From: Dictyophora rubrovolvata
Lineage: Eukaryota; Basidiomycota; Agaricomycetes; Phallales; Phallaceae
NCBI GenBank assembly: GCA_029959195.1
Contig: CP114125.1
Coordinates: 186,001 to 250,000 of the forward strand
Length of the DNA stretch: 64,000 nucleotides
Direction: 5' to 3'
A model generated the notes under the pieces. It was given only the letters and a program-made list of their open reading frames with translations. It ran no database searches and was not told the DNA's origin. This document shows, piece by piece, positions 211-1,093 of this stretch. Each line of letters starts with the position of its first letter. Positions within the stretch are counted from its first letter, which is position 1. Both the position numbers and the translations under genes were made by a program.

Positions 211-1093
211 TCATTCTTCTTTCTTTAGCCGTAAGCCTTTCTCCAATTCCGCAAAAGCCAATAAACTGGTATCCAGTCCGGAATTTGGCACACCCGAATC
301 CGGATCTTGCCGCGGAGTTTTGTTATCCAGGTCGAGTTCCTAGATGACGAAATGGTGAGTGAGGATGAGAAAATTTGAACGAGCGACTGAGAAAAAAAAA
401 TTGAGATAGGTAAATAGATCACCTCTTGGAGTCCTTCCGGCCATTCCGAGACGGGAACGCTCTTCGACGCCAAAGCCGTACGAATGGACTTCAAGGAGTC
501 CCGGTATGTCTCCAGAGAAGTGATGTATAGATCATACACACAAATTGCGCAACCTGATCAATATCAATATTGAAAAAAAAAACGTTGTATTTGTATTTCA
601 GATCTAGAACCGCCAAAAAAAACATGTGAAATGTGTACACTCGCCTGACATACAGCAGTCTAGTCAAGAAGCCAAAAGATCAATTAAGAAAACGTTTTTT
701 TTGTTTCCTCATAGAATGAAAGGAGAACGTGCCATCTGGTCCAGGCGGGATTGGCTTCTCTGGCACGATCATACCGCGGAACACCTTCGAGACTGGCATT
801 CCGAGCGTCATACCAGGATCGCCAATACTTGCGACTTCTATCTCGCCACTAGTACTACCGCTGTTGACATTGTTGTAGTTGTTGTTGTTAACATCTTCTT
901 TTTGCTTCAGTTGGCGTTGAATTGTTTTGGTCAATAACTCCCCACGAGATGTCAAGTTATGACCGCTTTTTAGCTGTGGCAGCCTCTGCCGCCTCCTGCT
1001 GGCAGTCGAAGAATAAAACCTGCCTGTGATATGTAAACAGTTCCATGAAATCAGTTTATGACATTTTGGGATAGCGTAAATGGAAATGAACAT
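211..1093 (-). CDS. OXLD1-like mitochondrial oxidoreductase-like protein
   Basis: The spliced product contains PEKPIPPGPDDCC then MSGCAICVYDLY, the signature of the oxidoreductase-like domain family (OXLD1, PF09791), a small mitochondrial protein family of unknown reaction. Exons read on the minus strand are (start)-733, 659-645, 553-423 and 339-211; all phases agree and the C-terminus is acidic and basic helical sequence ending in KKEE. The 15-nt second exon encodes the CCMSG core and is flanked by two GC-AG introns (660-732 and 554-644); the last intron (340-422) is GT-AG. An RFYSS-like stretch rich in R and S upstream of the domain fits a mitochondrial presequence. The start is uncertain: ATG at 1093 is the first in frame, but an acceptor-like site near 1020 would allow an additional upstream exon. 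Confidence 0.82.

What the first reader, a model, noticed from the sequence alone, without database searches (positions are those of the whole stretch)
645..659. 15-nt micro-exon carrying the OXLD1 signature cysteines, between two GC-AG introns
Only by using GC donors at both flanking introns (GCACGT at 732 and GCGAGT at 644) does the conserved DDCCMSGCAICVYDLY motif read through. Two consecutive GC-AG introns around a five-codon exon that encodes the core of the family motif is a rare arrangement and would be missed by standard gene callers.
Basis: partly seen in the sequence, partly recalled or inferred. Interest (0 to 1): 0.75.

Follow-up and report, generated by a model that had tools for sequence, protein, structure and literature searches.

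The report
Tiny exon between two GC-AG introns
A mushroom-class fungus most likely splices a 15-base exon, with a rare GC splice donor on each side, into the most conserved part of a mitochondrial-type protein; the prediction is well supported by comparison but unproven by RNA, and it is an uncommon version of something already known rather than a new kind of biology.

Summary
On the minus strand, exons 1093-733, 659-645 (15 nt), 553-423 and 339-211 join into an intact 211-aa protein of Pfam family PF09791, the Oxidored-like/OXLD1 family (64.8 bits, cut-off 24). The nearest named relatives are Phallomycetidae. A second PF09791 gene 105 kb away has intron 1 at the same position and phase, with a GT donor and no intron 2. 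Fourteen of 128 fetched proteins carry an insert at the intron-1 site; one, Clathrus, has eight extra residues at the intron-2 site. So intron 1 is old, intron 2 is probably a younger gain, and the micro-exon is what lies between them. The other donors I could resolve were GT (28 confidently, 3 tentatively; 3 junctions unresolved). Two adjacent GC donors are unusual (about 1 in 10,000 pairs at the published 1% rate), but a few such pairs per genome are expected. Micro-exons inside conserved motifs are known, and the neighbouring cyclophilin gene has one of 13 nt. No transcript evidence was available.

The parts
733..1093 (-). coding exon 1 (start ATG at 1093, my choice of start), N-terminal part up to ...IPPGPD
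   Evidence: the start MFIS.. aligns with Clathrus P0002 MFIPFSKCYKL
660..732 (-). intron 1, GC-AG, 73 nt, GCACGT...TTGACTAG, phase 1; site shared with the paralogue and with inserts in 14 relatives' proteins
645..659 (-). 15-nt micro-exon ACTGCTGTATGTCAG, codes (D)CCMS(G)
554..644 (-). intron 2, GC-AG, 91 nt, GCGAGT...GATCAG, phase 1; absent from the paralogue; Clathrus protein interrupted at the same site
423..553 (-). coding exon 3, GCAICVYDLY...
340..422 (-). intron 3, GT-AG, 83 nt, GTGATC...TCTAG
211..339 (-). coding exon 4 to the TGA stop
633..638 (-). alternative GT donor AGT|GTACAC that would lengthen the micro-exon to 21 nt and insert Glu-Cys into the motif; weak (3 of 9 matches to CAG|GTAAGT, counted by hand)

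Best explanation
The locus is a working gene for a PF09791 (OXLD1-like) protein in an agaricomycete fungus, probably of Phallomycetidae. Shown by sequence: a 15-nt exon lies between two GC-AG introns, and joining all four exons restores the invariant CCMSxCxxCVxDxY motif. Inferred: intron 1 is old (same site and phase in the paralogue and in relatives); intron 2 was gained 15 nt further downstream in a lineage that includes Clathrus; at some time both donors came to carry C at position +2. Inferred mechanism: the ordinary U2 spliceosome removes both introns, as it does with GC-AG introns generally. Each intron is short (73 and 91 nt) and can be recognised across the intron rather than across the exon, so a 15-nt exon is tolerated. 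Each GC donor keeps enough U1 pairing elsewhere to work (5 and 7 of 9 consensus positions; 4-7 in 22 other introns of this genome). The exon is included constitutively because it encodes two of the four signature cysteines.
For: Intact 211-aa product and Pfam 64.8 bits, against 28.2 for the unspliced exon-3 frame alone. First of 5,371 splice variants against a profile that did not include this gene. Second PF09791 gene L003...CCCGAAG|GTACTT...GTTAG|ACTGTTGTATGTCAAACTGC, same site and phase as intron 1, nearly the same bases after the acceptor, and reading straight through the intron-2 site. Of 128 proteins fetched, 124 have contiguous CCMSxCxxC, 1 (Clathrus P0002) is interrupted exactly at the intron-2 site, and 3 lack CCMS because they stop in intron 1 (P0001, P0004) or start inside the motif (P0016); 14 of the 124 carry an insert at the intron-1 site. 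Donor strength in the range of the genome's GT donors. Branch-site-like YTRAY words near the 3' end of introns 1 and 2. Micro-exon in a motif core in the neighbouring cyclophilin gene.
Against: No RNA evidence. No second assembly, strain or relative's DNA across the donors could be read, so an error or a private variant at either C cannot be excluded. The other donors resolved here are GT (28 confidently, 3 tentatively), so GC use is not shown elsewhere in this genome; three further chaperonin junctions stayed unresolved, and two of them (L026, L032) have GC candidates. In relatives' unspliced proteins the donor dinucleotide cannot be told, since GGT and GGC both give Gly. The introns (73, 91 nt) are longer than 22 chaperonin introns (46-69 nt), though cyclophilin has two of 73 and 74 nt.
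Confidence: 0.9

Rival explanations
1. The second intron starts at the GT donor at 638 instead, so the exon is 21 nt and the protein carries CCMSGECCAIC; only one of the two introns is then GC-AG.
For: In frame, GT-AG, second-best of 5,371 variants at 132.8 bits.
Against: Puts two residues into a stretch that is contiguous in 124 of 128 fetched proteins; the donor AGT|GTACAC matches the consensus at only 3 of 9 positions (by hand), below all 22 chaperonin introns (4-7), against 7 of 9 for the GC donor six bases upstream.
Confidence: 0.05
2. The micro-exon is a regulated cassette: skipping it (732-554 removed as one 179-nt intron) keeps the frame and gives PDGCAICVYDLY without DCCMS, switching off a four-cysteine centre. 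The weaker first GC donor would make inclusion adjustable.
For: The exon length is a multiple of three and the skip product stays open (108.5 bits). A fungal micro-exon whose inclusion decides whether a protein has its GAL4-like DNA-binding domain is known (Trichoderma Xlr2, PMC11121469, abstract read).
Against: CCMS is invariant in the alignment; the skip intron would be longer than any intron resolved here; nothing shows that the skip form exists.
Confidence: 0.06
3. The gene is decaying or the C bases are errors: one or both donors were recently lost by T-to-C change (or misread) and transcripts are no longer spliced properly.
For: Two GC donors in one gene when the other donors resolved are GT (28 confident, 3 tentative); both are one base from good GT donors (GTACGT, GTGAGT).
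Against: No stop or frameshift in 211 codons, third intron normal; the genome search returned only one other PF09791 gene, a paralogue with a different motif (that search scores only its best candidates), so no intact second orthologue is evident; independent errors at exactly two donor positions are unlikely.
Confidence: 0.05
4. One or both introns are of the U12 (minor) type.
For: Intron 1 holds TTTCTTAAT, 8 of 9 to the U12 branch consensus TTCCTTRAY (consensus recalled).
Against: That word ends 23 nt before the acceptor, further than usual for U12 introns (recalled), and also contains an ordinary branch word (TTAAT). Donors match the U12 donor RTATCCTTT at only 4 and 2 of 9 positions. Genome searches for U12 and U6atac RNA found nothing, while U6 was found in four copies; the tool warns that the two empty searches rang in no control either, so absence is not shown.
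Confidence: 0.01

Closest known systems
1-nt exon in the PKG motif of Fusarium CYP621A (PMC12940212, abstract and passages)
   Same: Fungal exon too short for standard callers, sitting inside a conserved motif, found by motif reading and comparison of orthologues
   Different: 1 nt rather than 15, GT and AG boundaries, and confirmed by transcript reads
Micro-exons of Phanerochaete chrysosporium P450 genes, 2-10 aa (PMC1184071, passages)
   Same: Basidiomycete, very short coding exons between short introns
   Different: Splice junctions reported there for cloned cDNAs are GT/AG; no GC pair described in the passages seen
Plant micro-exons of 1-15 nt, e.g. 9-nt exon in the AP2 domain core (PMC8831610, passages)
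   Same: Tiny exon in the core of a domain, often misannotated; GC-AG introns were allowed in that pipeline
   Different: Plants; RNA-seq supported
Trichoderma Xlr2 micro-exon (PMC11121469, abstract)
   Same: Filamentous-fungus micro-exon affecting a cysteine-rich (Zn(II)2Cys6/GAL4-like) domain
   Different: Ascomycete; regulated inclusion shown; here regulation is not shown
GC-AG introns of fungi, 1.009% of annotated introns (PMC7072748 Table 1, passages)
   Same: GC donor with AG acceptor
   Different: Here two in succession on either side of a 15-nt exon
PF09791 protein in Chaetomium thermophilum complex I, PDB 7zm7 chain o (that the entry is Chaetomium complex I is recalled)
   Same: Motif PDNCCMSGCVNCVWDAY aligns to this protein, E 2.6e-7
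   Different: 380 aa; only the 58-residue domain stretch aligns; a role in complex I is not shown for the window protein

Membership tests
PF09791 Oxidored-like (OXLD1 family) | Pfam score above the curated cut-off | tested here: met
   64.8 bits against cut-off 24, residues 105-150
PF09791 Oxidored-like (OXLD1 family) | Invariant CCMSxCxxCVxDxY motif | tested here: met
   Columns C122 C123 M124 S125 C127 C130 V131 D133 Y135 invariant in 16 sequences; requires the micro-exon
PF09791 Oxidored-like (OXLD1 family) | Similarity outside the domain (N-terminal GxNLTxR, C-terminal SLxAFxExE) | tested here: met
   Alignment: SGHNLTSR and SLLAFAELEK, as in the orthologues that reach those ends; the paralogue differs at the C-terminus
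PF09791 Oxidored-like (OXLD1 family) | Mitochondrial location | not tested
   No targeting predictor was run
GC-AG (U2-type) intron | GC at the donor and AG at the acceptor at the positions that restore the motif | tested here: met
   both introns
GC-AG (U2-type) intron | Otherwise good donor consensus (U1 pairing) | tested here: inconclusive
   7 of 9 at intron 2, only 5 of 9 at intron 1; 22 other introns of the genome 4-7
GC-AG (U2-type) intron | Spliced in mRNA | not testable with these tools
   No transcript data
Micro-exon (3-15 nt as defined in PMC13149111) | Length at most 15 nt | tested here: met
   15 nt
Micro-exon (3-15 nt as defined in PMC13149111) | Included in mature mRNA | not testable with these tools
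   No transcript data; comparative evidence only
U12-type intron | U12 donor RTATCCTTT (recalled) | tested here: not met
   4 of 9 (intron 1) and 2 of 9 (intron 2)
U12-type intron | U12 branch site TTCCTTRAY close to the acceptor (recalled) | tested here: inconclusive
   Intron 1: 8 of 9 but ending 23 nt from the acceptor; intron 2: at best 6 of 9
U12-type intron | Minor-spliceosome RNAs in the genome | tested here: inconclusive
   U12 and U6atac not found, U6 found four times; no control rang for the empty searches

The most novel reading that the evidence does not exclude
The two adjacent GC donors are not accidental: they make a 15-nt, frame-preserving cassette whose inclusion is adjustable, so the fungus can make a form of the OXLD1-like protein with all four signature cysteines and a form lacking the CC pair, as a redox- or metal-centre switch in mitochondria.
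Probability: 0.06. Interest if true: 0.55.

Novelty: new member of a known kind. Interest (0 to 1): 0.27.

Why it matters
It is a clean worked example of how an invariant protein motif can vanish from automatic annotation: a 15-nt exon plus two GC donors. It also suggests how such exons arise, with an old intron and a later intron gained 15 nt downstream. Gene callers that forbid GC donors or short exons will lose or garble this family member in related stinkhorn-like fungi; the Clathrus protein looks like such a case. It does not change ideas about splicing.

Tried and rejected
A coding-potential model trained there was weak, only 19 candidate introns passed, and consensus-pattern counts showed little excess of GT over other donors, probably because donors in this genome are poorly conserved. 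None of these gives a GC rate. Instead I resolved introns from homology: chaperonin (PF00118) matches gave 25 exon junctions in 8 genes, of which I took 19 as confident, 3 as tentative and left 3 unresolved; the 22 taken are GT. I picked them by hand from listed candidates that included GC donors. Against me: one tentative junction (L036 near 2618) also has a GC candidate that fits the profile spacing slightly better, and two of the unresolved ones (L026; L032 2107-2424) have GC candidates. Introns lying inside a single match were not examined. L029 and L030 were first read in the wrong orientation and corrected.

HSP70 exons were located, but their DNA could not be cut out. Pfam scans of 30 of the 51 open frames of 130 aa or more in the window matched in 2 and gave no introns to count. 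A structure prediction of the Hysterangium relative gave mean pLDDT 65 and pTM 0.31: the micro-exon residues fall in a low-confidence loop just before a confident helix. I did not search it against known folds. Two complex I papers, searched for this protein's names, gave no hit (passages); the Chaetomium paper is not held. A search for OXLD1, YPL107W, DPC25, UPF0651 and C17orf90 listed 15 of 35 papers, none about its function by title or abstract opening. Rfam and tRNA scans of the window were empty. Adjacent GC-AG introns around a micro-exon: the listings of searches (20 of 85, 12 of 24 and 9 of 9 papers; titles and abstract openings) show none; that is not proof of absence, and subscription papers are mostly missing from the library.

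I considered and rejected: GT-only models (no CCMS), U12 introns, a chance motif, a plain pseudogene.

Full report
What is there. The window lies at C9:186001-250000 of a 28.2-Mb, 11-contig genome. On the minus strand near its left end is a four-exon gene: 1093-733, 659-645, 553-423, 339-211, with introns GC-AG (73 nt), GC-AG (91 nt) and GT-AG (83 nt). The product is 211 aa with no internal stop and scores 64.8 bits against PF09791, Oxidored-like; the unspliced exon-3 frame alone scores 28.2. The 15-nt exon is phase 1 at both ends and supplies the end of an Asp codon, Cys, Cys, Met, Ser and the start of a Gly codon.

Is the reading forced? I fixed intron 3 and listed every combination of up to two GT/GC-AG introns (40-200 nt) between 800 and 430: 5,371 variants. 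I scored the proteins with a profile built from eight relatives, not from this gene. Second (132.8) keeps the GC donor at 732 but uses a GT donor at 638 and inserts Glu-Cys into the motif. The skip form scores 108.5. The best form with GT donors only scores 108.1 and has lost CCMS. The acceptor-plus-motif string occurs twice in 269 kb, at the two PF09791 genes and nowhere else.

Comparison inside the genome. A second PF09791 gene lies about 105 kb away on the same contig and strand (L003); the search, which scores only its best candidates, returned no third. Its intron sits after CCCGAAG and before ACTGTTGTATGTCA, the same place and phase as intron 1, is 55 nt long and starts GTACTT. It reads straight through the intron-2 site (CCMSNCRPC). 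So intron 1 predates the duplication, and intron 2 was either gained in the window gene's line or lost in the other.

Comparison outside. The nearest named proteins are from Clathrus columnatus and Hysterangium stoloniferum, both Phallomycetidae. I infer that the genome belongs near them; its name was not given. A profile search gave 386 relatives, of which 120 were listed. Of the 128 proteins fetched in all, 124 have CCMSxCxxC contiguous. One, Clathrus P0002, has eight extra residues (DLCLKMFP) exactly at the intron-2 site. Three lack CCMS: P0001 (this locus) and P0004 (a close relative on a 1.1-kb contig) run into intron 1 and stop, and P0016 starts inside the motif. A spacing test flagged 18 of the 124; by eye 14 of these carry an insert at the intron-1 site, and 4 do not (P0017, P0051, P0079, P0090). 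The 14 inserts all begin with Gly, as a G|GY donor would give, and the proteins continue through the intron-2 site without a break. I read these as unspliced intron 1 and no intron 2. They cannot tell GT from GC, because GGT and GGC are both Gly. Hysterangium, Ramaria and Gautieria proteins (P0003, P0038, P0052) are contiguous, which does not say whether their genes have intron 2.

How unusual are the donors? In fungi 1.009% of annotated introns are GC-AG (PMC7072748 Table 1, passages). Two in a row at that rate is about 1 in 10,000 pairs. A genome with some tens of thousands of introns (assumed, not counted) would hold a few. In this genome I took 31 other donors as resolved: 22 in chaperonin genes (3 of them tentative), 7 in cyclophilin, 1 in the paralogue and intron 3 of this gene. 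They are GT. Three of the 25 chaperonin junctions stayed unresolved, two with GC candidates, and one tentative junction has a competing GC candidate, so this sample does not put GC use at zero. Counting matches to CAG|GTAAGT, donor 1 has 5 of 9, donor 2 has 7 of 9, and the 22 chaperonin donors 4-7, mean 5.7. So even with C at +2 the two sites match the consensus about as well as the rest.

How unusual is the exon? Not very. The cyclophilin gene just left of the window (L004 4967-4030) has a 13-nt exon coding FMLQG in RVIPQFMLQGGDF, between GT-AG introns. Published cases include exons of 2-10 aa in Phanerochaete P450 genes (PMC1184071, passages), a 1-nt exon in a Fusarium P450 motif (PMC12940212, abstract and passages), 1-15 nt exons in plant domain cores (PMC8831610, passages) and the regulated Trichoderma Xlr2 exon (PMC11121469, abstract).

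Major or minor spliceosome? Neither donor resembles the U12 donor (4 and 2 of 9). Intron 1 does hold a word 8 of 9 like the U12 branch site, but 23 nt from the acceptor; the same word contains an ordinary branch word, and intron 2 has TTGAT 9 nt from its end. U12 and U6atac RNA genes were not found while U6 was, four times, although the tool warns that the empty searches had no ringing control. The ordinary U2 pathway is the better reading.

How it most likely works. Both introns are short enough to be recognised across the intron, so the spliceosome need not recognise a 15-nt exon; GC at +2 is tolerated because the rest of the donor pairs (established knowledge of GC-AG introns, recalled). 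Inclusion should be constitutive because CCMS is invariant in the family alignment. The protein's role is not settled. A family member is a chain of PDB entry 7zm7 (chain o), which I recall as Chaetomium thermophilum complex I, so a mitochondrial inner-membrane role is the best lead, but it is untested here.

Verdict. Skipping would keep the frame and remove two cysteines, so a regulated form is possible but unsupported.

Noticed in passing
L004 4967-4030, minus strand (C9:185966 downwards, just left of the window): Cyclophilin A gene of 8 exons, 7 GT-AG introns, with a 13-nt exon coding FMLQG of the RVIPQFMLQGGDF stretch and a 27-nt exon coding FFITTVTTS.
   Followed up: yes
L003 about 3262-2575, minus strand (C9 near 291,500; start codon my choice): Second PF09791 gene with motif CCMSNCRPCVHDVY; its search returned only an identical fragment and one 52% relative, both from unnamed assemblies, so it may be a paralogue limited to this group or fast-evolving.
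   Followed up: partly
8 chaperonin genes in L025-L036, and C9:181000-450000: Donor sites are poorly conserved (GTGTTT, GTATCG, GTTTGC and the like); a plain GTRNGT plus branch-site pattern shows hardly any excess in 269 kb.
   Followed up: partly
P0002 (Clathrus columnatus Clacol_004454): The deposited protein has eight residues, DLCLKMFP, inside the CCMS-GCAIC stretch, probably an annotation error at the intron-2 acceptor.
   Followed up: partly
window:38577-39698 (+) and window:59237-60130 (-): FAD_binding_4 and Amidase domains; the 28 others of the 30 open frames scanned had no Pfam match at E 0.001.
   Followed up: no
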